From positions 1 to 30,503 of the IMG/VR virus record IMGVR_UViG_3300044961_000128: a stretch of 30,503 nucleotides of DNA; one strand, 5' to 3'. Made by a program: the position numbers and the translations under genes. The notes beneath the pieces were generated by a model that saw only the letters and a program-made list of their open reading frames with translations, did no database searches and was not told the origin of the DNA. Source of the stretch: a virus. Shown piece by piece: positions 984 through 20,600 of this stretch (positions are counted from its first letter, which is position 1; every line of letters starts with the position of its first letter).

Positions 984-1304
984 ATGAAGCCGAAAAACTT
1001 TGAATACGATGTATCTATACCGGCTATGGCATCGGTAAATGGTGGTTTGTCGGTCGAACTGCTTAGTAAATTTTTTAATGATGGTCGTATAGTCGGTCGA
1101 TATGCAGAGTTTATTATTGAATCTCTTGGAATAGGTAAGCGGGCCGGAAATGAAAATTGTTCTTACGATAATGTCTCGCCCGACGGCCTTAAGATTGAAG
1201 TTCGATCAATGTATGATCGCGTTTCATTTGCACCATCAAATGAAGTAGGTAAGGGAAGGAAGTACACCGATGATGGGTGGGAAAAAAAAATTACAAAATG
1301 TTGA
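984..1304 (+). CDS. PD-(D/E)XK-like nuclease, 5' part before a frameshift
   Basis: A likely nuclease of the restriction-endonuclease fold, split into two frames. The N-terminal part has an acidic helix (GRYAEFIIE), then D67 in SPDG and IEVRS with E72 and R74, consistent with a D-x4-E-x-K/R catalytic core in which Lys is replaced by Arg. GAGGAG at 969-974 lies 9 bases before ATG 984 and decides the start, although the frame is open from 951. The ORF reads through nine A's at 1282-1290 and stops after ITKC. The rest of the domain continues in the frame of 1270-1461. Assignment to the superfamily is moderately sure; DNA specificity is unknown. Confidence 0.6.
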   Translation: MKPKNFEYDVSIPAMASVNGGLSVELLSKFFNDGRIVGRYAEFIIESLGIGKRAGNENCSYDNVSPDGLKIEVRSMYDRVSFAPSNEVGKGRKYTDDGWEKKITKC

Positions 1305-1461
1305 TCTGTGGTGTTTGGTAGACTATACAAATTATAATGTATGGAAATTTGTATTTCTTACTACGGATGAAGTGATTTCTTTAAAACAGCATGGGATAAT
1401 TACTAAAAATAATAAAACCGCTTCAAGAAAGAAACTCTACAAATATCTAAATTTAATTTAG
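1270..1461 (+). CDS. PD-(D/E)XK-like nuclease, 3' part after the frameshift
   Basis: This frame carries on where the preceding ORF breaks at the A run: LQNVDLWCLVDYTNYNVWKF gives the hydrophobic core strands (VDLWCLVDY, VWKFVFL) expected after the catalytic strand of restriction-like nucleases, then a basic C-terminus. The ATGs at 1270 and 1273 have no ribosome binding site, so independent translation is unlikely. A fused protein of about 159-160 residues would need a +1 (or -2) shift at the A run. This could be a mutation, a sequencing indel, or slippage by RNA polymerase or the ribosome. Confidence 0.5.
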   Translation: MMGGKKKLQNVDLWCLVDYTNYNVWKFVFLTTDEVISLKQHGIITKNNKTASRKKLYKYLNLI

Positions 1462-1465
1462 TCAT

Positions 1466-2182
1466 ATGTCATTTTTCGATTACAGAGACTTATACAATTA
1501 TCCCATATTCTTTGAGGAATGTGTTTCCTCTGCGCAAAACAGATTATTTGCCAAAACCATAAATACACATCACAGTTATGTAAAGTTTAAGTGTGTTCCG
1601 CAACGCAGAATTAATTGGCTCATTTATAAAAGTGATGGTGGTGATTTGTTGGGCGCGGTGGGACTTAGTAGTTGTGTATTGGCCGTTGGTGGCCGTGACC
1701 GATATATAGGATGGGATAGGGCGACGCGATTGCTTCATAGCAACAATGTTGCTAACAACTATCGGTTTTGTTTAATACCTAACAGTGGTGTAAAAAATCT
1801 TGGAACTATGAGTTTAAGATTATTGCGTGAACATGGCGCTCGTCGTTGGCAAGAAAAGTATGGTGATGAACTCGTATTACTAGAAACTTATGTTCAACCC
1901 GAGATCGACGGTTCAGATAATAAGAGAAATGGGGCCGTGTATTTGGCTGATAACTGGACTTTTGTGGGACGAACCTCGGGAAACAGCGTAAAAAAAGCAC
2001 CGGTGTTGTTATGGCAAAAGGAAACCAGCGCTAGAGGCGAATTGGCCAGAACTGATCCAAAAGCTGCGATTGCCAAATATGCAGTTGGTCGAGAACATTA
2101 TGTCGTCACCGATAGCACACAGAAGTTGATTTTCGTGAAACCACTCACAAAAGATTGGAAAAGCAAGTTAAACAAATTCTAA
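1466..2182 (+). CDS. DUF4338 (DruA-like) protein
   Basis: It matches the DUF4338 family, known from the DruA subunit of Druantia anti-phage systems and from stand-alone genes; the biochemical role is not established as far as I know. Family hallmarks are present in order: GAVGLSS near 63-69, RDRYIGW 77-83, a VANNYRFCLIP segment near 95-105, WQEKYG 128-133, LLETYV 138-143, and GAVYLADNW 156-164 followed by VGRTSG. At 238 residues it is shorter than full DruA, lacking part of the N-terminus. A second family member is encoded at 10462. The GxxYxAxNW motif is shared with the Mom-like protein at 5563, suggesting a related fold (inference). No other Druantia genes are in the window. Confidence 0.75.
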   Translation: MSFFDYRDLYNYPIFFEECVSSAQNRLFAKTINTHHSYVKFKCVPQRRINWLIYKSDGGDLLGAVGLSSCVLAVGGRDRYIGWDRATRLLHSNNVANNYRFCLIPNSGVKNLGTMSLRLLREHGARRWQEKYGDELVLLETYVQPEIDGSDNKRNGAVYLADNWTFVGRTSGNSVKKAPVLLWQKETSARGELARTDPKAAIAKYAVGREHYVVTDSTQKLIFVKPLTKDWKSKLNKF

Positions 2183-2207
2183 ATCCATCGAAAACTCCGT
2201 CTGTAGA

Positions 2208-2215
2208 CTATTTAT
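2208..2215 (+). promoter_or_regulatory. CTATTTAT motif upstream of the HNH gene
   Basis: This is one of four CTA(C/T)TTAT octamers seen in intergenic gaps (others at 6382, 13120 and 16868), each a short way upstream of a gene. It could be a phage -10-like promoter element. No convincing -35 box accompanies it. Confidence 0.25.
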
Positions 2216-2224
2216 CTAGTAATA

Positions 2225-2254
2225 ATGACTTACATACGGATGTATAATTTATGA
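2225..2254 (+). CDS. 9-codon ORF ending on the HNH start codon
   Basis: A minimal ORF (MTYIRMYNL) ends in an ATGA that overlaps the ATG of the HNH gene at 2251. It contains a small inverted repeat, TACAT-ACGG-ATGTA. It may act as a translational leader, but such overlaps also arise by chance. Confidence 0.2.
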   Translation: MTYIRMYNL

Positions 2255-2877
2255 ATTCTGATATGTTACAACTTGCCAAACAGACCAAATATACTGGGTT
2301 TGTTTCCATCGGCGATCTATTTGGATATTGGAAGATACTTGACAACAGACCATACATCACAAAGAATAAACGACAAGGTAGTATATATTTTTTATGTCAG
2401 TGTAAGCAATGCTATAAAGTAGATAAATTTGTAAATGTCCACCAGTTAAAAAAATACAAATTGAATGACGCTGGTGGGTGTATTTCCTGTTCACGAAAAC
2501 GAAATACACCAACTGGAAATAAAAATGTGTTGTGGAAAGGTTATGAAGAAATTCCAATGTCATATATTCACAACATCAGAAACTCAGCAATACGACGGGG
2601 TTTAACCTGGCAAGTTACAGAGGAATATATCTGGAATTTGTTTGTTGAACAGAACAGACGATGTAAGATTTCGGGCGTTGATCTTAAATTTTCTTCTACT
2701 ATAAACGCAAGAGATGGCACTGCTTCATTAGATCGAATTGATAGACATTGTGGATATGTGGAAGGTAACTTACAATGGCTTCATAAAAAAGTAAATGAGA
2801 TGAAGTGGGATATGTCCGATGAAGAATTCATTAGTTGGTGTAACATTATATCACAATACAATAATACACATGTTTAA
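2251..2877 (+). CDS. HNH homing-type endonuclease
   Basis: A probable free-standing homing endonuclease that cuts DNA and promotes its own spread. The N-terminal half has a zinc-ribbon-like Cys set (C49, C51, C54, then C77 and C80). A helical DNA-binding segment follows, then a C-terminal HNH domain with CKISG at 138-142, LDRIDRHCGYVEGNLQW at 160-176 and HKKVNEMK at 178-185. This arrangement is common in phage-encoded HNH enzymes. It sits directly upstream of the DNA polymerase gene, and its last codons overlap the polymerase start by 8 bases. Arginine is often AGA or CGA here, and the gene is more AT-rich than the polymerase, as expected for a mobile insert. Confidence 0.85.
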   Translation: MNSDMLQLAKQTKYTGFVSIGDLFGYWKILDNRPYITKNKRQGSIYFLCQCKQCYKVDKFVNVHQLKKYKLNDAGGCISCSRKRNTPTGNKNVLWKGYEEIPMSYIHNIRNSAIRRGLTWQVTEEYIWNLFVEQNRRCKISGVDLKFSSTINARDGTASLDRIDRHCGYVEGNLQWLHKKVNEMKWDMSDEEFISWCNIISQYNNTHV

Positions 2878-5515
2878 GAATATTTTTGTAACTAACAGAA
2901 CACAAGATCAAGATGCTATTGTATATGTGTGGGGCGACGGACAACATAATGACCTCGGATTGAGAACTTACAAATGGTCTGACTTCGATTACGCTTATAA
3001 GTTGGATCGTGCCGGTGACAAAGTAACAATTTTTGGTGATCGTGTATCAAAAACATTTCGTTGGAAAGAAGGTCAGCCCGGTATCTTTGAGAGCGATGTC
3101 CCGCGTGAAACTCGCGTATTGACAGATTTATACCAAGACAGCGATGAGGTAGCAAAAAATCATCGTGTATTATTTTTTGACATTGAGGTAGAAAAGGTCA
3201 ACGGTGAGTTTGCAAATATTGAACGTGCCGATGGCGTAATTAATGCTATCGGCTGCTACGCACAGGCCAAGGATGAATATGTAGTATTTTTGCTGGATCG
3301 TGATTCTCGTATGGATAACCGGCGACAAGTCAAAAACGAAACCGTTGTGACCTTTGCTTCCGAGGCGGAATTGCTCGAAGCATTTATGGCTTATTATAGT
3401 GACTACGCGCCAACTATTCTCACGGGATGGAACATTTCGCAGTTCGATATTCCATATTTGTATCGTCGTCTGTCAGTAATTTTTGATGACGACACCGCAA
3501 ATATGTTGAGTCCTATTGGTATGATAAAGTATAGCAAGCTTCGTCGTCAGTATCAGTTGGCGGGCGTGAGCTGTCTCGACTACTTGGAAATGTATCAGAA
3601 GTTTACGTTTGCTCGTCGTCCAAGTTATCGACTTGATGCTATTGGTATGTATGAAGTTGGTATGGGTAAGATTGAATATGAAGGAACACTTGATGATCTA
3701 TACGCAAGTGATCTTGAAAAATTCATTGAATACAACTTGCAAGACGTGCGTATCGTAGTGGCGCTCGACCGAAAGATGAAACTCATTGATTTGGTCAAGA
3801 ACATTAGTCACGTTGGTCATACGCAATACGAAGACTACAAGTATAGTTCCAAGTATATCGAAGGGACCATTCTGGTATACCTACATCGTAAGAATATCGT
3901 AGTGCCAAACAAGCGTCCCGAGGGTCGTGAAGAATTTGACCAGAAGCTCGAGGATGATGATGAAGGTTTCGCCGGCGCGTTCGTAAAGCCGCCGATGCCG
4001 GGTCTGTATGATTGGGTATATAATCTCGACTTGCAGAGTCTATATCCGTCAATCATTATGACGTTGAACATTAGCCCAGAAACAAAGATGGGGTATGTCA
4101 CAAATTGGAACGTCGAACAGTTTATGAAGAACACCTTGATGGATCTTCAACTTAAAATTGATGATGTGGAAGTAAGCATGAACCGTGAGGAGTTCGCGGA
4201 TTTTATGGAAACTAATCGTTTTATGTTGAGTTCCAACGGTGTATTATATCGTGCAGACAAGACCGGGGTAATTCCAGAAATTCTTGATGTCTGGTTCAAG
4301 CAACGTGTCGAATACAAGGGTTTGATGAAGAAGTACAAGAAGGAAGGTAATGATGAACTGGCTGACTATTATGATCGACGCCAGCACGTACAAAAGATTC
4401 TTCTGAATTCTATTTACGGCGTGTTGGGTCTACCCGTCTTCCGATTCTACGACTTGGACAATGCGTTGGCAGTGACGGCTACAGGTCAAGATGTAATCAA
4501 AACCAGTGCGAGATTTCTTTCGAATCAGTATGTAAAGATGGGAGCAGAACCCAAGTCGGAATCGTGGTTGTTTGAATACAAAGAAGTCTTGGATACAGAA
4601 GTCAAAAAAGGTAGATTGACCCGTGAAGAAGCGGATAAGTTGATGAGTCCTAATGATCACTGTATCTATATTGACACTGATTCTGTGTATTTCTCGGCTA
4701 TGTCTGTGGCAAAGAATGTATCGGATATGAAACAGTTCACTGTAGAGTTGGCCCGTGATATGGAACGTCAACTCAACAAGTTTTACGATACAATGGCGCG
4801 TAAATTGTTCTTCTGTAATGAAAATCACCGATTTGTAATCAAGGGTGAAGCTGTGTGTGAAACCGCGTTTTGGGTAACCAAAAAGCGATACGCAATGAAG
4901 AAAGTATATGACCTTGAAAGTGGTATTGACTTAGAAAAGGCGAAACTGGTCGTAAAAGGATTAGATACGGTTCGGTCAAGTTTTCCACCGGCTTTTCAGA
5001 AGATCATGTCAGAGTGCTTGGACGCCATTCTAAATAAGAAGGATAAGGTCACACTCGATGATATGATTTTGAGCTTCCGTTCTGTATTGAATACCATGCC
5101 GTTTGAGGCGGTGGCACGTAATACCGGAGTCAAGAACATCAGTGAATTCGATAACAAGAAGGTCAAGGGATTCAAAATCTTTGATAAGGGTACGCCGGCG
5201 CACGTTAAAGCTAGTATTGCATACAATCGGTGGTTACGTCACCACAATCTGGATAAGAGCTATGAAGTCATCAAAGATGGTGATAAAATCAAGTGGACCT
5301 ATCTGAAAAAGAATGATCTCGGTATTGATACGATGGCATTGAAGGGATATGACGACCCACCAGAACTGGTCGAGTTTGTTAACAAGTACATAGATTACGA
5401 TGCCTTGTTTGAAAATGAGTTGAAAAACAAGATAGAAGATTTCTATTCAGCATTAAAATGGGGTAAATTACCAACCGATGTCAACCAATCTGCTAGTAAG
5501 TTCTTCGAGTTCTAA
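2870..5515 (+). CDS. 43: Family B DNA polymerase (T4 gp43-like)
   Basis: The phage replicative polymerase, with 3'-5' proofreading. Exonuclease motifs are FFDIEVE (D104, E106), NISQFD (D193) and YNLQDV (D292). Polymerase motifs are A, DLQSLYPS (D387); B, KILLNSIYG; and C, YIDTDSVYF (D602, D604). A KKRYA motif follows. All catalytic acids are present. At 881 residues it is close to T4 gp43 (898). The frame is open from 2819, but ATG 2870 (MFKNIFVTNR) gives the expected N-terminus, while the earlier start would lie deep inside the HNH gene. It acts with the sliding clamp and clamp loader encoded downstream. No intein or intron is seen in this gene. Confidence 0.97.
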   Translation: MFKNIFVTNRTQDQDAIVYVWGDGQHNDLGLRTYKWSDFDYAYKLDRAGDKVTIFGDRVSKTFRWKEGQPGIFESDVPRETRVLTDLYQDSDEVAKNHRVLFFDIEVEKVNGEFANIERADGVINAIGCYAQAKDEYVVFLLDRDSRMDNRRQVKNETVVTFASEAELLEAFMAYYSDYAPTILTGWNISQFDIPYLYRRLSVIFDDDTANMLSPIGMIKYSKLRRQYQLAGVSCLDYLEMYQKFTFARRPSYRLDAIGMYEVGMGKIEYEGTLDDLYASDLEKFIEYNLQDVRIVVALDRKMKLIDLVKNISHVGHTQYEDYKYSSKYIEGTILVYLHRKNIVVPNKRPEGREEFDQKLEDDDEGFAGAFVKPPMPGLYDWVYNLDLQSLYPSIIMTLNISPETKMGYVTNWNVEQFMKNTLMDLQLKIDDVEVSMNREEFADFMETNRFMLSSNGVLYRADKTGVIPEILDVWFKQRVEYKGLMKKYKKEGNDELADYYDRRQHVQKILLNSIYGVLGLPVFRFYDLDNALAVTATGQDVIKTSARFLSNQYVKMGAEPKSESWLFEYKEVLDTEVKKGRLTREEADKLMSPNDHCIYIDTDSVYFSAMSVAKNVSDMKQFTVELARDMERQLNKFYDTMARKLFFCNENHRFVIKGEAVCETAFWVTKKRYAMKKVYDLESGIDLEKAKLVVKGLDTVRSSFPPAFQKIMSECLDAILNKKDKVTLDDMILSFRSVLNTMPFEAVARNTGVKNISEFDNKKVKGFKIFDKGTPAHVKASIAYNRWLRHHNLDKSYEVIKDGDKIKWTYLKKNDLGIDTMALKGYDDPPELVEFVNKYIDYDALFENELKNKIEDFYSALKWGKLPTDVNQSASKFFEF

Positions 5516-5562: not shown

Positions 5563-6363
5563 ATGTTCATAGACAAAACAAAAATATCAATTAGACGAAT
5601 TTCTAATGATGTTGCTCGTGATATGATACGAAAATATCACTATACTAAAAATCTCAATGGATGTAAATATGCGTTGGGTGTGTATTATAAAACTTCTACT
5701 AATGGATTCTTTGATATCGATGAAGAATTGGTGGGGGTTATAGTATATGCACATCCGGTAAGTAATAAAACAGTTGATAGTATTTGTGGACCTTCAATTT
5801 TAAAAAACGACGAAGTGTTGGAACTGGTTAGACTATATGTAAAAGATCTTCCCAATGATAAAAACATTGAAAGCTTTGTAATTGGACAGAGTTTTGAATG
5901 GTTACGTGCAAACGACCCCAAGGTGAAGGTCTTAATTAGTTATGCCGATCCTGAAGTCGGACATACAGGCCGCATCTATAGAGCAACAAACTGGCTATAT
6001 CAAGGGTGCGGAATCAGTAAACTCATGCCCGACTATAGCATCAAGCTCACCGAAGATGGCGAGTGGATTCATAGTCGTAGTGTTGCGTCAAAATTCGGTA
6101 ATAAAAACATCAAGAGTCTCGCTAAAAGAATTGGTCACACGTTCTGGCAAAAGGAAGATTCATCTAAGCATAGATATATTTATTTTCTTACAGATAAACG
6201 AGAAACTAAACGACTCAAAAAAATGCTAAAGTTGCCTATACTACCATATTCCGAAATCAAACATCCGACACAGGTTATTAGAAAGGTGTATGTAAAAGAT
6301 GGTGAAGTTGAAAAAATTGAGGTATTGCAAGGGGAAGACACCGGATGGAAACGTAAAAAGTAG
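5563..6363 (+). CDS. Mom-like DNA modification protein (GNAT-like)
   Basis: It resembles the phage Mu Mom family, GNAT-fold proteins that convert adenine to a carbamoylmethyl form and protect DNA from restriction. The visible match is the early KYHYTKNL (25-32) and GVYYK, the central LELVRLYVKDLP near 87-97, and the diagnostic ISYADPEVGHTGRIYRATNW at 125-144. The conserved Tyr-Ala-Asp-Pro includes D129. At 266 residues it is a little longer than Mu Mom. It follows the polymerase by 47 bases, which hold no clear promoter. A role in masking phage DNA is inferred from the family; the exact modification cannot be read from sequence. Confidence 0.75.
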   Translation: MFIDKTKISIRRISNDVARDMIRKYHYTKNLNGCKYALGVYYKTSTNGFFDIDEELVGVIVYAHPVSNKTVDSICGPSILKNDEVLELVRLYVKDLPNDKNIESFVIGQSFEWLRANDPKVKVLISYADPEVGHTGRIYRATNWLYQGCGISKLMPDYSIKLTEDGEWIHSRSVASKFGNKNIKSLAKRIGHTFWQKEDSSKHRYIYFLTDKRETKRLKKMLKLPILPYSEIKHPTQVIRKVYVKDGEVEKIEVLQGEDTGWKRKK

Positions 6364-6381
6364 TGTTTTTCACAAAATATA

Positions 6382-6389
6382 CTATTTAT
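6382..6389 (+). promoter_or_regulatory. CTATTTAT motif upstream of structured RNA and GIY-YIG gene
   Basis: Second copy of the intergenic CTA(C/T)TTAT octamer, extended here to TATTTATATA. It lies just before the interleaved inverted repeats, so a transcript starting downstream of it would begin with that structure. Function is inferred. Confidence 0.25.
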
Positions 6390-6393
6390 ATAC

Positions 6394-6476
6394 GCCTACC
6401 AAGCACACATATAAAATCCCGCATGAGTATCATCCTTACGCTTGGTAGGCTTTGGGTAGAGAAAATGCGGGATTTT
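6394..6476 (+). other. Interleaved inverted repeats, candidate H-type RNA pseudoknot
   Basis: Two perfect inverted repeats interlock. Arm A is GCCTACCAAGC (6394-6404) with A' at 6440-6450, and arm B is AAAATCCCGCAT (6413-6424) with B' at 6465-6476. The order A-B-A'-B' is that of an H-type pseudoknot with 11 bp and 12 bp stems and loops of 8, 15 and 14 bases. B' runs into TTTTTCTTT, so the B/B' stem alone also resembles a terminator with a large loop. It lies between the Mom-like gene and the ATG of a GIY-YIG gene at 6492. Possible roles are a regulated terminator, translational control of the endonuclease, or a stable small RNA. It matches no riboswitch I know. Confidence 0.55.
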
Positions 6477-6491
6477 TCTTTGGAATAGTGT

Positions 6492-7280
6492 ATGGAATAT
6501 TATGTATACGCTCATTATATACCTGGAGAACCGTTTCCATTTTATATAGGAAAGGGTAAAGCTAATAGAGCATATGATTTAAAAGGACGTTCAAAGTTTT
6601 GGAATAGAAAAGCTAAGAACGGATTTGATGTAGTCTTTATAAGCGTCAATTTGGCGGAACATGAATCCTTACTTCTAGAAAGAAAAATGATACTATTTTA
6701 TGGTAGAAAAGATAATGCTACCGGGTGTTTGGTTAATCATACCGATGGTGGGGATGGATTAACAAACCCCTCAATAAAAACTCGTAAAAAAATTGCAGAT
6801 GCAAACAAAGAACGATTTAAGGATCCACAATTCAGAAAAAGGTTTTCAGTAGCACAGAGAAACAAAGTTATAAAAGAATCTACTAAAACCAAAATGAGTC
6901 AGGCACATATAAACAGATTTAAGTCAATGGAGGAAAGAAATAAACATAAAAAACTGTCAGAAAGAGCTTGGTCTTCCGTGGAATTGAGAAAAAAGCAAAG
7001 TGAACTTATATCCAAGAAACACAAAGAAAATCCAGAAATTGCAAATAAGATAAGACAATATAGATTGGGTAAAACGCTTTCACCTGATAGTAGACGTAAG
7101 CTTAGTCAGAAAAAATGTGGACGGTCTTATATACTTGTGTCTCCTGACGGAAAAGAGTATACTTGTCTGTATCAAAGCGAATTTGCAAGAGAACATAATT
7201 TGAATGTAAAAAGCTTAAATAAACTTCTGTTGGGCAAAATAAAGACGCTTAAAGGATGGACAATAAAAGATGAAATATAG
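6492..7280 (+). CDS. GIY-YIG homing endonuclease with NUMOD repeats
   Basis: Residues 1-85 form a GIY-YIG nuclease domain: YVY (4-6), FYIGKG (17-22), R26, acidic residues at E58/E63 and N82. Then come several Lys-rich NUMOD3-type helical repeats (SIKTRKKIADANKERF, TKTKMSQAH, LGKTLSPDSRRKLSQ), and a C-terminal NUMOD1/IENR1-like segment (LVSPDGKEYTC to LKGWTI). This matches I-TevI-like homing enzymes, which bind DNA through the C-terminal repeats. It is A-rich and uses AGA for most arginines, unlike the polymerase, which suggests transfer. The ATG at 6492 has only a weak GGAA upstream. Confidence 0.88.
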   Translation: MEYYVYAHYIPGEPFPFYIGKGKANRAYDLKGRSKFWNRKAKNGFDVVFISVNLAEHESLLLERKMILFYGRKDNATGCLVNHTDGGDGLTNPSIKTRKKIADANKERFKDPQFRKRFSVAQRNKVIKESTKTKMSQAHINRFKSMEERNKHKKLSERAWSSVELRKKQSELISKKHKENPEIANKIRQYRLGKTLSPDSRRKLSQKKCGRSYILVSPDGKEYTCLYQSEFAREHNLNVKSLNKLLLGKIKTLKGWTIKDEI

Positions 7281-7359
7281 AACCGGTACCGGTGATGGTA
7301 GTTTCAAATTCAAGGGTGAGTGGAGGCCAGACGAGTGGACATCACAAAATTCACAATAA
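7270..7359 (+). CDS. Short ORF or gene remnant after the GIY-YIG gene
   Basis: A 29-codon ORF starts within the last codons of the GIY-YIG gene and reads MKYRTGTGDGSFKFKGEWRP with DEWTSQNSQ after it. The composition looks like real coding sequence. It spans the 12-bp palindrome at 7282-7293. It may be an independent small gene, or the 5' end of the gene continuing at 7320-7640 in another frame after a frameshift. I see no ribosome binding site. Confidence 0.3.
   Translation: MKYRTGTGDGSFKFKGEWRPDEWTSQNSQ
7282..7293. repeat. 12-bp perfect palindrome ACCGGTACCGGT
   Basis: The sequence equals its own reverse complement and begins two bases after the stop codon of the GIY-YIG gene. It may be a protein-binding or insertion-boundary site, but nothing else identifies it. 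Confidence 0.3.
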
Positions 7360-9675: not shown

Positions 9676-9704
9676 TTGACAGAACACCATATAGATGTTA
9701 CATT
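9676..9704 (+). promoter_or_regulatory. Sigma70-like promoter upstream of the sliding clamp
   Basis: A perfect -35 box TTGACA (9676-9681) is followed after 17 bases by TACATT (9699-9704), which matches 4 of 6 bases of the -10 consensus. The spacing is ideal. The start site would fall around 9710, giving a short leader before the clamp ATG at 9737. Host RNA polymerase could use it early in infection. Confidence 0.55.
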
Positions 9705-9717
9705 TATATGGTGTTCT
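9681..9717 (+). promoter_or_regulatory. Long hairpin overlapping the clamp promoter
   Basis: AGAACACCATATA (9681-9693) pairs perfectly with TATATGGTGTTCT (9705-9717). The pairing extends inward through GATG and CATT (one G-T pair) to a 3-base loop, giving about 17 bp. It sits across the promoter spacer and -10 box. As DNA it could be an operator for a dimeric repressor; as RNA from upstream it could be a processing site or weak terminator, though only CACTTTT follows and there is no strong T run. Confidence 0.55.
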
Positions 9718-9736
9718 CACTTTTACAGAGGAAACA

Positions 9737-10462
9737 ATGAAGAAAAGTATTCTTGAACGGTTTATTTCCAAGTATAATCTTGGTGGCGTGGCTAATGCTG
9801 TCATTCTCAAGTCCGATGGTAAGAGTCTATCCACGACTTTTATCAGTGACGACAAGAGCGTGGTAGGCGAAGTCAGCACCACACAACTACAGATGGACCC
9901 AGGCTCGTATGCTGTATATGATACGCCACAGCTTCGTAGTATGCTCGGTGTATTGGACGAGGATATCACGGTCAAGGTTGTTACCGTGAATGGTAAGAAT
10001 ACATCGTTGTCGTTTAGTGACAACAGCGGCGTAAAGACCAACTTTGTGTTGGCGTCTGAAGATAACATTCCAAGGGCGCCTGTCGCCAAGAAGGCCATGC
10101 CAAATTTTGAAGTCGTGTCCACTCTCGATAAGGTGTTCGTGGAACGATTCATCAAGGCTAAGAACGCATTGCCCGATGTAGAAACGTTTACGGTGTTGTG
10201 TGATGGTAAGTCGGCACAGATTGTTATTGGTCATAGTAAGATGAATACCAATCGTGTCACATTACCTCTGCCGGCATCAACGACAGACAAGATTGAACCC
10301 ATCAACTTCCACGCCCGATATCTCAAGGATATTCTTGTAGCAAACAAGGAAGCAGATAAGGGTAAGATTGAAGTATCATCGCAGGGTATTGCTCGCGTAA
10401 CATTTGAAATCGCGGATTTCTCGGTCACTTACTACCTCCCAGTTATTCAGCTCGAAGACTAA
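9737..10462 (+). CDS. 45: Sliding clamp (T4 gp45-like)
   Basis: The DNA polymerase processivity factor, expected to form a trimeric ring on DNA and, in T4-like phages, also to activate late transcription. At 241 residues it is close to T4 gp45 (228). The recognisable features are the two-domain beta-rich pattern and the neighbourhood of clamp loader and polymerase genes; individual residues are poorly conserved in this family. GAGGAAAC just before ATG 9737 decides the start; the frame is open from 9695, but that ATG lies in the hairpin. Its TAA overlaps the next ATG (TAATG at 10460). Confidence 0.8.
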   Translation: MKKSILERFISKYNLGGVANAVILKSDGKSLSTTFISDDKSVVGEVSTTQLQMDPGSYAVYDTPQLRSMLGVLDEDITVKVVTVNGKNTSLSFSDNSGVKTNFVLASEDNIPRAPVAKKAMPNFEVVSTLDKVFVERFIKAKNALPDVETFTVLCDGKSAQIVIGHSKMNTNRVTLPLPASTTDKIEPINFHARYLKDILVANKEADKGKIEVSSQGIARVTFEIADFSVTYYLPVIQLED

Positions 10463-11689: not shown

Positions 11690-13045
11690 ATGAACGCTAC
11701 ACACAGTATATGGGTAGAAAAATATCGTCCTACCACACTTGATAATTACATCGGCAACGATAGCATGAAGGCCAAGGTTGGCAAGTTTATTGCCGAGGGT
11801 GATGTTCCACACATCTTGTTGAGTGGACCACCAGGAACAGGCAAGACCACAGTGGCCAAGATTATTGTCAAGAACATTGAGTGTGAAAGCTTGTATATCA
11901 ATGCATCTGACGAGAACAACGTAGATACAGTCCGAAACAAAATAAGGGGATTTGCCTCGACCGTGGGGTTTACAGATCTCAAAGTCATCATTTTGGATGA
12001 GTGTTTGGACGAAAATACATTGGTGTGGGTGCTTCGTGAGGGGTCAGAAACCGCAGTGGCTATAAAAGATGTAAATCCGTTGACGGATTTAGTGAAATCG
12101 TGGAATACAACCCACAATCGAATCGAGTGGAGACAATTTGATAAATTTGATAAAGGTTTACAAGATGTATATGAACTTGAGTTAGAGAACGGTGAGGTCG
12201 TAATCTGTACGGCGGATCACAAATGGTACGTTCGATCAGACACAGGCGAGATACTAGTGGTTAAAACATCAGAATTGGACACTTATTCTCACATACTGTC
12301 CCCAGAAGTGGAATTAAAAACTGTCAAAATTACGAAAATAAAAAAACTCGACGTACAAAGACGTGTATATGATTTATCCGTTCAAGGAAATCATAACTTT
12401 TTTATTGGACGGACACAAACACTGACTCATAATTGTGATTACATGACACCAAACGCACAAGCTGCGCTTCGTAACGTTATGGAAACGTTTAGTCGGTCGT
12501 GCCGATTCATCTTGACTTGTAATTATGTAGAACGCATTATTGATCCGATCATCAGCAGAACTCAGCAATTCCACGTAGTTCCGCCGAATAAGATTGAGGT
12601 AGCCAAGCACCTCGCTGGTATCTTGAAACAGGAAGGCGTGTCGTATAAGCCGGATGACATCAAGTTGCTCGTAGATGCTTATTATCCCGATATTCGTAAG
12701 ATTATCGGCGAAGCCTCGTTGGCCGTTAATGACGGGAAATTGTCAATTGATGCCGAGGAAGTGGTTGCTTCTGATATTAAACTTCGTGTCATTGAACTTC
12801 TTGGACAGAAGGGTGATGCTAAGAAGCGATTCACGGAAATTCGTCAACTGTTCGCTGATGCTGGTATTCGTGACTTTACTGAATTTTATAGTCTTTTATA
12901 CTCCAATGTAGATACCTACGCTAAAGGAAATGTTAGTCAAGTAATTTTACACATTGCTGAGGGTCAAAAATACGACGCGCAGGTGGTCAACAAGGAAATT
13001 AATATGATGGCAACGATTATCAACATTCTACAAACAATAGGGTAA
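11690..13045 (+). CDS. 44: Clamp loader ATPase (T4 gp44-like) with an intein
   Basis: The AAA+ large subunit that loads the sliding clamp onto primed DNA. The N-extein has WVEKYRPTTLDNYIG (box II of RFC-like proteins), Walker A GPPGTGKT (46-53) and Walker B VIILDE (99-104). Translation then runs into a 144-residue intein (105-248) and resumes as CDYMTPNAQAALRNVME, the normal continuation of the DE(A/C)D box. IISRTQQF supplies the Ser-Arg sensor motif that acts across subunits. Spliced length is 307 residues, close to T4 gp44 (319). The start follows a 17-codon leader ORF and has no strong ribosome binding site. Activity should depend on protein splicing, because the intein separates Walker B from the rest of the ATPase. 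Confidence 0.93.
   Translation: MNATHSIWVEKYRPTTLDNYIGNDSMKAKVGKFIAEGDVPHILLSGPPGTGKTTVAKIIVKNIECESLYINASDENNVDTVRNKIRGFASTVGFTDLKVIILDECLDENTLVWVLREGSETAVAIKDVNPLTDLVKSWNTTHNRIEWRQFDKFDKGLQDVYELELENGEVVICTADHKWYVRSDTGEILVVKTSELDTYSHILSPEVELKTVKITKIKKLDVQRRVYDLSVQGNHNFFIGRTQTLTHNCDYMTPNAQAALRNVMETFSRSCRFILTCNYVERIIDPIISRTQQFHVVPPNKIEVAKHLAGILKQEGVSYKPDDIKLLVDAYYPDIRKIIGEASLAVNDGKLSIDAEEVVASDIKLRVIELLGQKGDAKKRFTEIRQLFADAGIRDFTEFYSLLYSNVDTYAKGNVSQVILHIAEGQKYDAQVVNKEINMMATIINILQTIG
12002..12433 (+). mobile_element. Mini-intein in the clamp loader (Walker B site)
   Basis: A self-splicing protein element of 144 residues with no endonuclease domain. It has C1 in CLDENTLV (block A), T70-A71-D72-H73 (block B TxxH), D124 in RRVYDLSV and H131 in GNHNFFIG (block F), and the terminal TLTHN with H143-N144 (block G), followed by Cys+1. 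All residues needed for the standard splicing pathway are present. Size and the ending resemble naturally split phage-type inteins such as gp41-1, but here both halves are in one ORF. It interrupts VIILDE / CDYMT, the catalytic Walker B motif, a typical intein insertion point. Confidence 0.93.
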
Positions 13046-13765: not shown

Positions 13766-14212
13766 ATGCCCCCCAAGACACCATTTGATCACATCAATGC
13801 AATTTTTACTAATCAGAAAATCGGCTATTATGATGAACTAAGTGAGGCTGACCGTAAAACGTTCACGCCATACGTCATCAATATGGGGATTAGTATGAAT
13901 CCTGACTTCTTGCCATATGTCAACGAAGTCAACAAGTATTGGGGTCAAATGGGTCCGCGTGAAGTATACTTATTTTACAGTCAGTTGCTTCCCAAAGGTA
14001 AGCAGTTCAATAAGTGGATCAAGGGTAAAAAAGTTGAAGACTATGAACCGTGGCTTGTCGAGTTAGTAGCACAACATTTTTGTGTGTCTAAGGATGAAGC
14101 CATTTCGTATCTTCGGGTATTTTACAAGTCCGATAAAGGACGCCAAGAACTCAGGTCTATTCTTGAAGGATATGGATTAGAATCCAAAAAAATTAAGAGG
14201 GCAAAGTTATGA
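13766..14212 (+). CDS. 62: Clamp loader small subunit (T4 gp62-like)
   Basis: In T4 one gp62 joins four gp44 subunits to load the clamp. The C-terminal half fits gp62: LPKGKQFNKWIKGKKVED near 79-96, where T4 has a similar KRFGKWVKKEKLED pattern, then a helical segment (VELVAQHFCVSKDEAISYLRVF) and a basic tail. The protein is 148 residues, shorter than T4 gp62 (187) and similar to short forms in other T4-like phages. It lies 720 bases after gp44 rather than directly next to it. Its TGA overlaps the next ATG (ATGA at 14209). Confidence 0.65.
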   Translation: MPPKTPFDHINAIFTNQKIGYYDELSEADRKTFTPYVINMGISMNPDFLPYVNEVNKYWGQMGPREVYLFYSQLLPKGKQFNKWIKGKKVEDYEPWLVELVAQHFCVSKDEAISYLRVFYKSDKGRQELRSILEGYGLESKKIKRAKL

Positions 14213-17438: not shown

Positions 17439-17470
17439 AATTTCGCTTAGTTCAAAATAAGAGGTTGTGA
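17435..17470 (+). CDS. 11-codon linking ORF, second of two
   Basis: MKFRLVQNKRL starts on the ATGA of the preceding 12-codon ORF and ends in TGATG, sharing one base with the glycosyltransferase start at 17470. Together the two tiny ORFs bridge the gap between the GIY-YIG gene and the glycan operon. Confidence 0.25.
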   Translation: MKFRLVQNKRL

Positions 17471-19005
17471 TGACGGACACGTTACTACAAGAATCAGAAG
17501 TAGCAGGAACCGGTCGGTTTGATTCGAACGGAATAACAACACTACAATCAGGTGCAATGGAAGACATCAAAAATCAAGTTGTTGGTAGTCATGAACAACG
17601 CGATGGTTGGATTCCAAAAGATCAACGTAAAAAAATCTTACTACTATCTGATGATCTTCGAATGCCGTCTGGTGTCGGTGTTATGTCTCGTGAAATTGTG
17701 TTAGGAACGGCGCATCGAATCAATTGGGTCCAGTTGGGAGCCGCTATCAATCATCCAGAGGCCGGCCGAGGAATTGATATCAGTGCTTCCATAGAAACGG
17801 AATATGGTATCAAAGATCCTTATGTTCGTATTTTCCCATATAATGGATATGGCGATCCACCTATTCTACGTTGGTTGATTAATAATGAACGGCCCGATGC
17901 CATCATGCATTTTACCGACCCGCGATTTTGGGTTTGGTTGTATCAAATGGAGCATGAGTTCCGTGATACCATACCGTTATTATTTTATCATGTGTGGGAT
18001 GATACCCCATATCCAAAGTATAACGAAAATTTCTATCGTAGTTGTGATGCCATTTATGCAATTTCCAAACAGACATATAACATAGTACAACAAGTGTGGA
18101 AGAAAGACCCCCCAAAGCCGTGGCAAGTCAAATATATTCCACACGGTGTAAACCCAAATCTTTGGAAGCGATATACCGAAAAAGAAGACCTTGACCGCGT
18201 TGCACAAATCAGAAAGAACATGTTTGGCGAAGAGGCTGACACGGTTCAGTTTGTAGTGTTTTATAATAACAGAAATATTCGTCGTAAGATGACTAGTGAT
18301 GTTATTCTCGCCTATCGTGACTTTTTATTGGGACTACCCGAAAAGATGCGGGCCGAGTGCCGACTGCTATTACATACCGCACCTGTAGACGATAATGGTA
18401 CCGATTTGTATGCCGTGCTTCGTGACGTGGCCCCGGAAGTTAATGCTGTGTTTTCAACGGCACGACTCGATCCCCGTTCGATGGTGGATATCTATAACAA
18501 TGTTGATGTTGTCATCAATATTGCATCAAATGAAGGATTTGGTATTGGTACACTGGAAGCAATGATGTCAGAACGAATGATCATTGCCAATGTTACAGGC
18601 GGACTACAAGACCAGATGGGCTTTCGTGACGAGAATGGTGAATTACTTAGGGAAGACAAGCATTTTAATGCCGAGTGGGGCACAAATGCTGATGGTCGTT
18701 ACAAGAATCACGGGGAATGGGTTGTACCCGTATTCCCGAATAATCGTTCTCTCATTGGTTCTCCACCAACGCCATACATATTTGATGACCGCTGTGACTA
18801 TCGTGATGCCGCAAAGGCATTGCGGCAAGTGTATGATATGGGACCGGAAGAACGTGCTCGGCGTGGAAAGTTGGGCCGAGAGTTTGCAATGGGTCCAGCA
18901 GGCATGACCACAGATGAAATGAGTCGTAGATTTATGGAGGCATTTGACGAGTGTTTCGAAAATTGGGAACCAAGAGATCGAGTAGGCATCTTCAAAGCGG
19001 AGTAA
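17470..19005 (+). CDS. GT-B fold glycosyltransferase (GT4-like)
   Basis: The first gene of the glycan operon, 511 residues. It should transfer a sugar from a nucleotide-sugar donor. After a 50-residue polar N-terminus, KKILLLSDDLRMPSGVGVMS begins the N-terminal Rossmann domain. The C-terminal domain has VVFYNNRNIRRK, then ARLDPRSMVDIYNNVDVVI and the donor-binding NEGFGIGTLEAMMSERMII, the E-x7-E pattern of GT4 enzymes. YIPHGVNPNLW is the usual hinge segment. A GTG at 17467 directly precedes ATG 17470. The acceptor is unknown: phage DNA, virion glycans and host surface sugars are all possible. Confidence 0.85.
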   Translation: MTDTLLQESEVAGTGRFDSNGITTLQSGAMEDIKNQVVGSHEQRDGWIPKDQRKKILLLSDDLRMPSGVGVMSREIVLGTAHRINWVQLGAAINHPEAGRGIDISASIETEYGIKDPYVRIFPYNGYGDPPILRWLINNERPDAIMHFTDPRFWVWLYQMEHEFRDTIPLLFYHVWDDTPYPKYNENFYRSCDAIYAISKQTYNIVQQVWKKDPPKPWQVKYIPHGVNPNLWKRYTEKEDLDRVAQIRKNMFGEEADTVQFVVFYNNRNIRRKMTSDVILAYRDFLLGLPEKMRAECRLLLHTAPVDDNGTDLYAVLRDVAPEVNAVFSTARLDPRSMVDIYNNVDVVINIASNEGFGIGTLEAMMSERMIIANVTGGLQDQMGFRDENGELLREDKHFNAEWGTNADGRYKNHGEWVVPVFPNNRSLIGSPPTPYIFDDRCDYRDAAKALRQVYDMGPEERARRGKLGREFAMGPAGMTTDEMSRRFMEAFDECFENWEPRDRVGIFKAE

Positions 19006-19268
19006 TTCCGCCGGGTGAAGATCCGAAAGTCAGAAAAATCATCTCGAATACCTCTGTTGCGGACCTTGTATTGCGAGAGTATAAAAAGGAAGAGTTTGAC
19101 GAACAATTGTGGCGATTGAAGTGGGAAGACTTCAGACATCCACATACCGGTGAGAACGGCACTCAATATTTAAATCGTATGAAATCTGAGTTGCCATTCA
19201 ATCCCTCTTTACAAAAAAATTCTAATGTCATTATTGTGATTGAACCGTTATATGGACCAAAGAGGTAA
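18951..19268 (+). CDS. Hypothetical protein, about 105 residues
   Basis: Not recognised. The frame opens inside the end of the glycosyltransferase gene. A GTG start at 18951 is supported by GGAGG at 18936-18940, 10 bases upstream, and gives a 55-base overlap; a TTG at 18963 is the alternative. The protein has a helical, charged middle (VLREYKKEEFDEQLWRLKWE) and a more hydrophobic C-terminus (NVIIVIEPLYGP). It ends 3 bases before the next glycosyltransferase, so it is probably co-translated. Confidence 0.6.
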   Translation: MFRKLGTKRSSRHLQSGVIPPGEDPKVRKIISNTSVADLVLREYKKEEFDEQLWRLKWEDFRHPHTGENGTQYLNRMKSELPFNPSLQKNSNVIIVIEPLYGPKR

Positions 19269-19271
19269 TAG

Positions 19272-20600
19272 ATGATAAAGCCAATGTGTGTTATTCAGAG
19301 CCCACTTGAAACTCGTTCTGGATATGGAGACATGTCACGAGACATTTGCCGTCATATCATTGAACTTGATCTTTATGATGTGAAATTAGTGAGTATGGGT
19401 TGGGGTATGACACCAATGAATGCACTCGACCCAGAAAAAGACACGGAGTTGATTAAGCGTATAGTGCCGCATCCGGTTCAACTTCCACGTCAACCCGAGT
19501 TGTTTATCCAAATTAGTGTACCTAATGAATTCCAACCGGTCGGTAAATACAATATTGGTATCACCGCCGGCATTGAAACTACGGCAATTAGCCTACCGTG
19601 GGTACAAGGATGTAACCGCATGAATACGGTCTGGACTATTTCACAACATTCAAAATTGGTCATTGAATCCACGAGCATAGAAGAACGTACCCCCGATGGG
19701 CGGACCATAGCCAATCATAAGGTTACTGTACCGGTTGAGGTGTTGCATAATTGTATCAATACGGAAATTTTCAAGAAGATACCACCGGAACTTATTGAAC
19801 CAAAAGTTCGTGAGATGTTTACTAAGGTGAAGGAGAAATTTGCATTCTTGTTTGTTGGACACTGGTTGCAGGGTAATATTGGTGAAGACCGAAAAAATGT
19901 GGGTTTGTTAGTTAGCATTTTTTGTCAAGCGTTCAAGGATACAGTATCAACAAACAAACCAGCACTAATTCTCAAGACTTCTGGTGCTGGATTTAGTTTG
20001 TTAGACCGAGAAGATATTCTCAGAAAAATCAAAGATATTCGATCTAGCATTGGTCCAAACTGTCCAAATGTATACTTGATTCACGGTGAATTGACCGAAG
20101 CAGAAATGAATAGTCTTTACAATCATCCCAAAGTCAAGGTACATATCAGTTTGACGAAAGGCGAAGGATTCGGACGCCCATTGTTGGAAGCCACACAAAG
20201 CGGCAAACCAATAATTGCCTCTGGTTGGTCAGGTCCTATCGACTTCTTAGAAAAGGAAAAGTGTATCTTGTTACCTGGTGAACTCAAGAATGTAGACGCC
20301 AGCGCGGTCTGGGAAAATGTCATCATCCCAGAATCACAATGGTTTAATGTCAATCCTGATGCAGCGGGTAGTGCAATGCTTTTTGCATTCAGGAAGTATG
20401 ATAATCTCGTTTTGCCAGCTAAGCAGTTGGCGAAATCCGTTCGTGACAAGTTCAATTATGCAGTGATCAAGGATCGTACTAAAGACTTACTTGAAAAGTA
20501 TGTACCGAAGATGGCCGTTCCGGCTCCGGTAGTATTGCCTAAACTAAACAAAATTACGAAGAAAGTTGTAAATGAAGAATCTATCCAACCAACTGTCTAA
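19272..20600 (+). CDS. GT-B fold glycosyltransferase (GT4-like)
   Basis: A second large glycosyltransferase, 442 residues. The N-terminal domain begins with MCVIQSPLETRSGYGDMSRD, a Gly-containing loop typical of acceptor-binding domains. The C-terminal domain contains FAFLFVGHWLQG, LIHGELTEAEMNSLYNHPKV and the donor motif KGEGFGRPLLEATQSGKPII (E-x7-E) followed by SGPIDFL. GAGG at 19262-19265 with TAATAG precedes the ATG. The last 25 residues are Lys/Val-rich and overlap the next gene by 29 bases. It probably works in series with the upstream and downstream transferases. Confidence 0.87.
   Translation: MIKPMCVIQSPLETRSGYGDMSRDICRHIIELDLYDVKLVSMGWGMTPMNALDPEKDTELIKRIVPHPVQLPRQPELFIQISVPNEFQPVGKYNIGITAGIETTAISLPWVQGCNRMNTVWTISQHSKLVIESTSIEERTPDGRTIANHKVTVPVEVLHNCINTEIFKKIPPELIEPKVREMFTKVKEKFAFLFVGHWLQGNIGEDRKNVGLLVSIFCQAFKDTVSTNKPALILKTSGAGFSLLDREDILRKIKDIRSSIGPNCPNVYLIHGELTEAEMNSLYNHPKVKVHISLTKGEGFGRPLLEATQSGKPIIASGWSGPIDFLEKEKCILLPGELKNVDASAVWENVIIPESQWFNVNPDAAGSAMLFAFRKYDNLVLPAKQLAKSVRDKFNYAVIKDRTKDLLEKYVPKMAVPAPVVLPKLNKITKKVVNEESIQPTV

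What the first reader, a model, noticed from the sequence alone, without database searches (positions are those of the whole stretch)
12002..12433. Contiguous 144-residue mini-intein at the Walker B motif of a phage clamp loader
All splicing residues are visible (C1, TADH, D124, H131, H143-N144, Cys+1), and there is no endonuclease domain. Block A (CLDENTLV) and the ending (GNHNFFIG to TLTHN) look like the fast split inteins gp41-1 and NrdJ-1, but this one is unsplit. It may be a relative of the ancestor of those split inteins and a natural fast-splicing cis mini-intein. It also ties clamp loading to splicing, because Walker B is broken until the intein leaves.
Basis: partly seen in the sequence, partly recalled or inferred. 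Interest (0 to 1): 0.75.

Follow-up and report, generated by a model that had tools for sequence, protein, structure and literature searches.

The report
Re-fused split intein in phage clamp loader
This phage replication gene carries an intact self-cutting protein insert whose relatives are nearly all broken into two separate genes with a DNA-cutting mobility gene between them, and the sequence scars suggest that the two halves were rejoined when the mobility gene was deleted, the reverse of the direction usually assumed for split inteins.

Summary
The clamp-loader gene (11690-13045) holds one contiguous 144-residue class 1 mini-intein (12002-12433) right after Walker B, with all splicing residues and no endonuclease domain. 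The ancestry idea is best turned round. I found 54 distinct inteins at the same site (window included), in uncultivated phages and one archaeal MAG contig. 43 are split 'fractured genes' with a homing endonuclease (HEN) gene between the halves, 6 are split with a decayed or deleted HEN, and 5 (four lineages) are contiguous. One origin of the contiguous state is rejected. Two contiguous forms have near-identical split+HEN sisters (91% and 98% intein identity against 54% and 69% for the C-extein). Contiguous L022 still carries the HEN's last ten codons in another frame. The window reads exactly as the N-half of its split sisters (...HILSPE) followed by their C-half (MELK, here VELK), with the HEN's terminal Gly-Ile codons in the same frame and place. 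So it is most likely a split intein re-fused by HEN deletion, not an ancestor. The tree alone does not prove this for the window (AU p 0.11-0.24); the junction and parallel cases carry it. No special kinship to gp41-1 or NrdJ-1 was found. Splicing is predicted, not shown.

The parts
11690..13045 (+). Clamp-loader ATPase gene (RFC-small / T4 gp44-like), 451-aa precursor, 307 aa after splicing
   Evidence: clamp gene 9695-10462 and clamp-loader small subunit 13766-14212 are near neighbours
11690..12001 (+). N-extein, 104 aa, ends in the Walker B motif VIILDE
   Evidence: intein-free relatives read LDE|xDY at the same point
12002..12433 (+). Contiguous class 1 mini-intein, 144 aa
12002..12307 (+). 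Part equivalent to the separate IntN of split relatives (CLDENT...HILSPE, 102 aa); in L013 and L038 a stop codon follows this E
12308..12433 (+). Part equivalent to the separate IntC of split relatives (VELKTVKITK...LTHN, 42 aa); L013 and L038 start here with MELK
12308..12310 (+). GTG codon at the position of the IntC start codon (ATG in L013, L038, L015 and others)
12310..12315 (+). Probable trace of the deleted HEN gene: GGA ATT in the HEN frame (Gly-Ile, place -10), same place and frame as the HEN C-terminal codons of the split sisters
12434..13045 (+). C-extein, 203 aa plus stop; starts with Cys+1 (CDYM)

Best explanation
The window encodes an intact, very probably active cis-splicing class 1 mini-intein at Walker B of a phage clamp loader. 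It most likely descends from a split intein: an ancestor had the gene fractured into [clamp loader N + IntN], a homing endonuclease gene, and [IntC + clamp loader C]. The HEN spread that allele by cutting uninterrupted clamp-loader genes. Later a deletion removed the IntN stop codon and nearly all of the HEN gene and put IntN in frame with IntC. Trans-splicing of two proteins thereby became cis-splicing of one, and the element lost its own means of spread. Shown here: the sequence facts, the split family, the decay series and the junction matches. Inferred: splicing, HEN activity and the time order for the window itself.
For: (1) 54 distinct members at the same site: 43 split+HEN, 6 split without intact HEN, 5 contiguous. 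(2) On the intein tree the contiguous state needs four changes; one clade of contiguous forms is rejected (AU p 1e-33). Three lie directly beside split+HEN sisters: L022/L026, L048/L050, L204/L203. (3) In the first two pairs intein identity far exceeds C-extein identity (91.4 v 53.8%, 97.9 v 68.9%; also split pair L042/L045, 95.7 v 59.0%), a sign of recent mobility, which normally needs a HEN; the contiguous partner has none. (4) Decay series: HEN remnants lie in the gaps of L201 (332 nt), L039, L011, L005 and L042; L040 has overlapping halves with the HEN 3' end. (5) Contiguous L022 reads GIGYNAKDKN* in the HEN frame, its sister's HEN ends GIGYSEQDKD*. (6) Window...HILSPE|VELKTVKITK equals L038 N-half ...HILSPE* plus C-half MELKVIAIKS; the linker matches HEN 3' ends better than all but 1 of 200 shuffles; the Gly-Ile codons sit at place -10 as the corresponding HEN codons do in L013 and L038, chance about 0.8% per place. 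(7) The window's clamp loader is sister to that of L005 (100/99), which is split with a HEN remnant. (8) Window basal in 0 of 1000 outgroup-rooted bootstrap trees.
Against: Outgroups are distant and AU tests do not reject a basal window (p 0.11 and 0.24). A two-rate state model cannot fix direction. The window's own HEN trace is short, and its codons coincide with the IntC N-terminus (MELK) of split members. The clade joining the window to L008, L013, L038 and L185 has only 93/78 support. L048 and L204 keep no HEN trace. HEN-less inteins could move by a HEN acting in trans. HEN and intein trees agree only moderately overall (Mantel rho 0.21, 26 of 2000 permutations as high). No splicing or cleavage was measured.
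Confidence: 0.72

Rival explanations
1. Ancestral form: the window keeps the original contiguous intein, and HEN genes repeatedly inserted at the same point of contiguous inteins and split them.
For: A basal window is not rejected by AU tests; literature speculates that split inteins arose from contiguous ones (PMC5874633).
Against: Needs many insertions of one HEN family at one codon; contiguous L022 and overlapping L040 contain HEN 3' ends; six members show decayed or deleted HENs; the window groups inside split members.
Confidence: 0.15
2. Never-split lineage: an ordinary mini-intein that lost an internal endonuclease domain (for example LAGLIDADG) and only happens to resemble the split family.
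For: Common route to mini-inteins (homing cycle, PMC3229294); distant contiguous inteins exist in other proteins (L061).
Against: No contiguous family member with an internal endonuclease domain was found; same site, 59-65% identity to split members, and exact end-to-end match of the halves.
Confidence: 0.07
3. Retained regulator: the intein is kept because splicing gates clamp-loader activity (Walker B is interrupted until excision).
For: Insertion directly after the Walker B acidic residues; low dN/dS.
Against: Insertion in conserved ATPase motifs is the usual outcome of homing; 72 intein-free relatives exist; purifying selection is expected of any intein in an essential gene.
Confidence: 0.05

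Closest known systems
Split inteins of 'fractured genes' (Dassa et al. 2009, cited in PMC3229294; paper itself not held)
   Same: Relatives at this very site have the fractured layout: IntN gene, free-standing HEN gene, IntC gene, split at the usual HEN position
   Different: The window member is contiguous with no HEN; here the HEN looks TnsA-like PD-(D/E)xK by motif and weak family and fold matches; sameness with the HEN family of 2009 was not tested
gp41-1 split intein (PDB 6QAZ, 6RIZ)
   Same: Hint fold, same split region in relatives, ending LTHN; phmmer E 4e-7, TM 0.70
   Different: About a quarter identity, not nearer than cellular mini-inteins such as Spl DnaX or NpuDnaB
NrdJ-1 split intein (PDB 8UBS)
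   Same: Hint fold, TM 0.74
   Different: Not found by sequence search
Archaeal RFC small-subunit inteins
   Same: Homologous host protein; weak NCBIfam match of the C-terminal block to an intein-bearing RFC model
   Different: No HEN domain here; an insertion-site comparison with archaeal inteins was not made
AceL NrdHF split intein (PMC7891396)
   Same: Phage-like fractured gene with IntN of 98 aa, IntC of 48 aa and HEN between
   Different: Class 3, GIY-YIG HEN, other host gene, still split

Membership tests
Class 1 intein (Hint domain) | Nucleophile C1, block B TxxH, C-terminal HN, Cys/Ser/Thr +1 | tested here: met
   Sequence; conserved through the family
Class 1 intein (Hint domain) | Intein profile and fold | tested here: met
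Class 1 intein (Hint domain) | Self-excision with extein ligation | not testable with these tools
   Needs expression
Mini-intein | Contiguous, no endonuclease domain | tested here: met
   144 aa in one ORF
Split intein of a fractured gene | Halves encoded by separate genes | tested here: not met
   One ORF in the window and in L004; 49 of 54 family members are split
Split intein of a fractured gene | HEN gene between the halves | tested here: not met
   No HEN in the window gene; 43 of 54 family members have it
Split intein of a fractured gene | Descent from that group | tested here: inconclusive
   Inside split members on the best tree and never basal in rooted bootstraps, but AU does not reject a basal place; junction supports descent
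gp41-1 / NrdJ-1 lineage | Closer to these than to other inteins | tested here: not met
   Spl DnaX ranks first, NrdJ-1 absent; no joint tree with them was built
Phage clamp loader (gp44 / RFC small) | RFC-type AAA ATPase near clamp and clamp-loader small subunit genes | tested here: met

The most novel reading that the evidence does not exclude
Splitting of inteins is reversible in nature. In phages a homing endonuclease spreads a split intein, decays after fixation, and its deletion rejoins the halves into one cis-splicing mini-intein; this happened at least four times at the clamp-loader Walker B site. The naturally contiguous mini-inteins of this family are therefore descendants, not ancestors, of split inteins.
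Probability: 0.68. Interest if true: 0.75.

Novelty: new variant of a known kind. Interest (0 to 1): 0.62.

Why it matters
Split inteins are speculated to come from contiguous ones (PMC5874633), and loss of mobility is described as HEN decay inside a contiguous intein (homing cycle, PMC3229294). This family shows each stage of a cycle through a split state in present-day sequences: empty site, split+HEN, decaying HEN, short gap, overlapping halves, contiguous. It makes the direction question testable with natural pairs that differ by little but the split (L048/L050, 98% identical inteins). Such pairs are also ready material for comparing cis- and trans-splicing rates. I found no report of natural re-fusion in the papers that could be searched; most subscription papers and Dassa 2009 itself were not available.

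Tried and rejected
Outgroup L206 attached to L006 with a branch of 9.1 changes per site, and L061b and L071 were also long; they were dropped. A two-rate Markov model of split/contiguous states gave degenerate rates and no direction. Local-alignment shuffles for L022 were not significant (128 of 200), because of strict penalties; the anchored comparison with its sister is what shows the HEN trace. The L048 and L204 junctions show no HEN trace. I first took the HEN for a Vsr-type enzyme; motif and fold point weakly to TnsA. L002, the closest clamp loader in named phages, has its intein at Walker A, not at Walker B. No close relative of the intein exists in 50,697 named phage records. Dassa 2009 could not be read.

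Full report
Observation. The clamp-loader ORF 11690-13045 contains a 144-residue intein at 12002-12433, directly after the Walker B residues DE and before Cys+1. The splicing residues claimed are all there. Intein profiles match above their cut-offs, AlphaFold2 gives a confident Hint fold (pLDDT 94.3), and the nearest solved structures are mini-inteins. A second genome with 97.6% identical gene DNA (L004) has the same layout, and the changes between the two are mostly silent.

The family. Scans of viral contigs with the intein and its halves and one scan of cellular genomes gave 54 distinct inteins at the same site, the window's included. In 43 the clamp loader is broken into two genes: one ends with IntN of about 100 residues, the other begins with IntC of about 40, and another gene lies between, in most members of about 250-370 codons. 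Its product is conserved around an E, D, ExK motif, matches the TnsA-like Pfam family weakly and TnsA structures weakly, and has the look of a homing endonuclease (HEN); activity is inferred. Six members are split without an intact HEN. Five (four lineages) are contiguous: the window and L004, L022, L048, L204. 72 intein-free relatives read through the site without interruption. One member lies on an archaeal MAG contig (L209). None is in 50,697 named phage records.

Direction. The contiguous members do not form one group (AU p 1e-33); they need four changes on the intein tree and on the extein tree. L022, L048 and L204 are each sister to a split+HEN member. For L022/L026 and L048/L050 intein identity is 91.4 and 97.9%, C-extein identity 53.8 and 68.9%, so the intein moved recently between diverged genes, which normally needs an endonuclease the contiguous partner lacks.

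The six split members without HEN show the decay: L201 keeps 332 nt with an internally deleted HEN, L039 273 nt, L011 116 nt with the C-terminus still readable (WINESNIMEYIDES...NKLKSGI), L005 and L042 a few dozen nt, and in L040 the halves overlap with the HEN 3' end still present. In contiguous L022 the other reading frame at the joint gives GIGYNAKDKN*, where the HEN of its sister L026 ends GIGYSEQDKD*. That sequence has no reason to be in a never-split intein.

The window joint. Its nearest split members on the intein tree include L013 and L038. Their N genes end ...HILSPE-stop and their C genes begin MELKRLEIKS and MELKVIAIKS. The window reads ...HILSPE-VELKTVKITK: the last N codon is followed at once by the position of the C start codon, here GTG. 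In the HEN frame the window joint encodes S-G-I-K; the corresponding HEN codons of L013 (Gly-Thr) and L038 (Gly-Ile) sit at the same place (-10). Over shuffled linkers such a pair falls on a given place with about 0.8% probability, and the linker matches HEN 3' ends better than 199 of 200 shuffles. Because HEN end and IntC start overlap there, this is good but not independent proof. The clamp loader itself is sister to that of L005, which is split with a HEN remnant.

What the trees cannot say. Rooting with distant inteins puts the window basal in none of 1000 bootstrap trees, but AU tests do not reject a basal place (p 0.24; 0.11 with more outgroups). A state model with free rates is uninformative; with equal rates it favours a split ancestor. 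HEN and intein trees share many small clades but correlate only moderately overall. The direction therefore rests on junction traces and on the parallel cases.

Mechanism. Shown: layouts, junctions, distribution. Inferred: the HEN cuts intein-free clamp-loader DNA, repair copies the split allele, the HEN decays once targets are gone, and a deletion fuses the halves; the fused intein then splices in cis by the standard class 1 route (C1 thioester, branch at Cys+1, Asn144 cyclisation; established knowledge). Whether Walker B interruption serves regulation is untested.

Known and new. A mini-intein in a replication ATPase is ordinary; fractured genes with split inteins are known (Dassa 2009, cited in PMC3229294; PMC7891396). 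What appears new is the repeated return from split to contiguous with the intermediate stages preserved. The literature I could search speaks only of the opposite direction (PMC5874633). The same HEN family also splits UvsW-like helicases and another AAA ATPase at Walker B DE|C and terminase genes of cultured coliphages such as kaaroe, which offers a laboratory system.

Noticed in passing
L011, L021, L039, L177, L183, L198, L204: A second intein at Walker A (GTGK|C...HN|T) of the same clamp loaders, split very early (IntN about 25-35 aa). In L177, L183 and L198 the protein is encoded in three pieces needing two trans-splicing reactions.
   Followed up: partly
L173 4176-5306; L002 (LR756508) 5965-7359: The Walker A intein also occurs contiguous, so that site too exists in both states; direction not tested.
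   Followed up: partly
L071, L072, L077, L080: Relatives of the HEN lie between halves of a CobS/MoxR-like AAA ATPase and of UvsW-like helicases, each split at Walker B DE|C.
   Followed up: partly
L210 (MN850574 kaaroe) 1106-4217; L211 (NC_019909) 1366-4215: Cultured coliphage and Yersinia phage terminase genes are fractured at Walker B (IYIDE|C) by the same HEN family; in kaaroe IntN and HEN are one ORF. Vibrio phage vB_VmeM-32 and a Desulfovibrio phage match the joined intein in one piece.
   Followed up: partly
L042 and L045: Inteins 95.7% identical, N-exteins 89.1% but C-exteins 59.0%: looks like a one-sided co-conversion tract.
   Followed up: no
L061 4776-6935: One ORF carries two contiguous mini-inteins.
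   Followed up: no
L002 2709-4574: DNA polymerase of huge phage LR756508 has an intein ending just before a T-D-S motif.
   Followed up: no
window 6492-7280: Free-standing HNH-type homing endonuclease (phrog_314), downstream of the DNA polymerase gene with one gene between.
   Followed up: no
window 5563-6363 and 17467-20600: Mom-like DNA modification gene and two glycosyltransferase genes.
   Followed up: no
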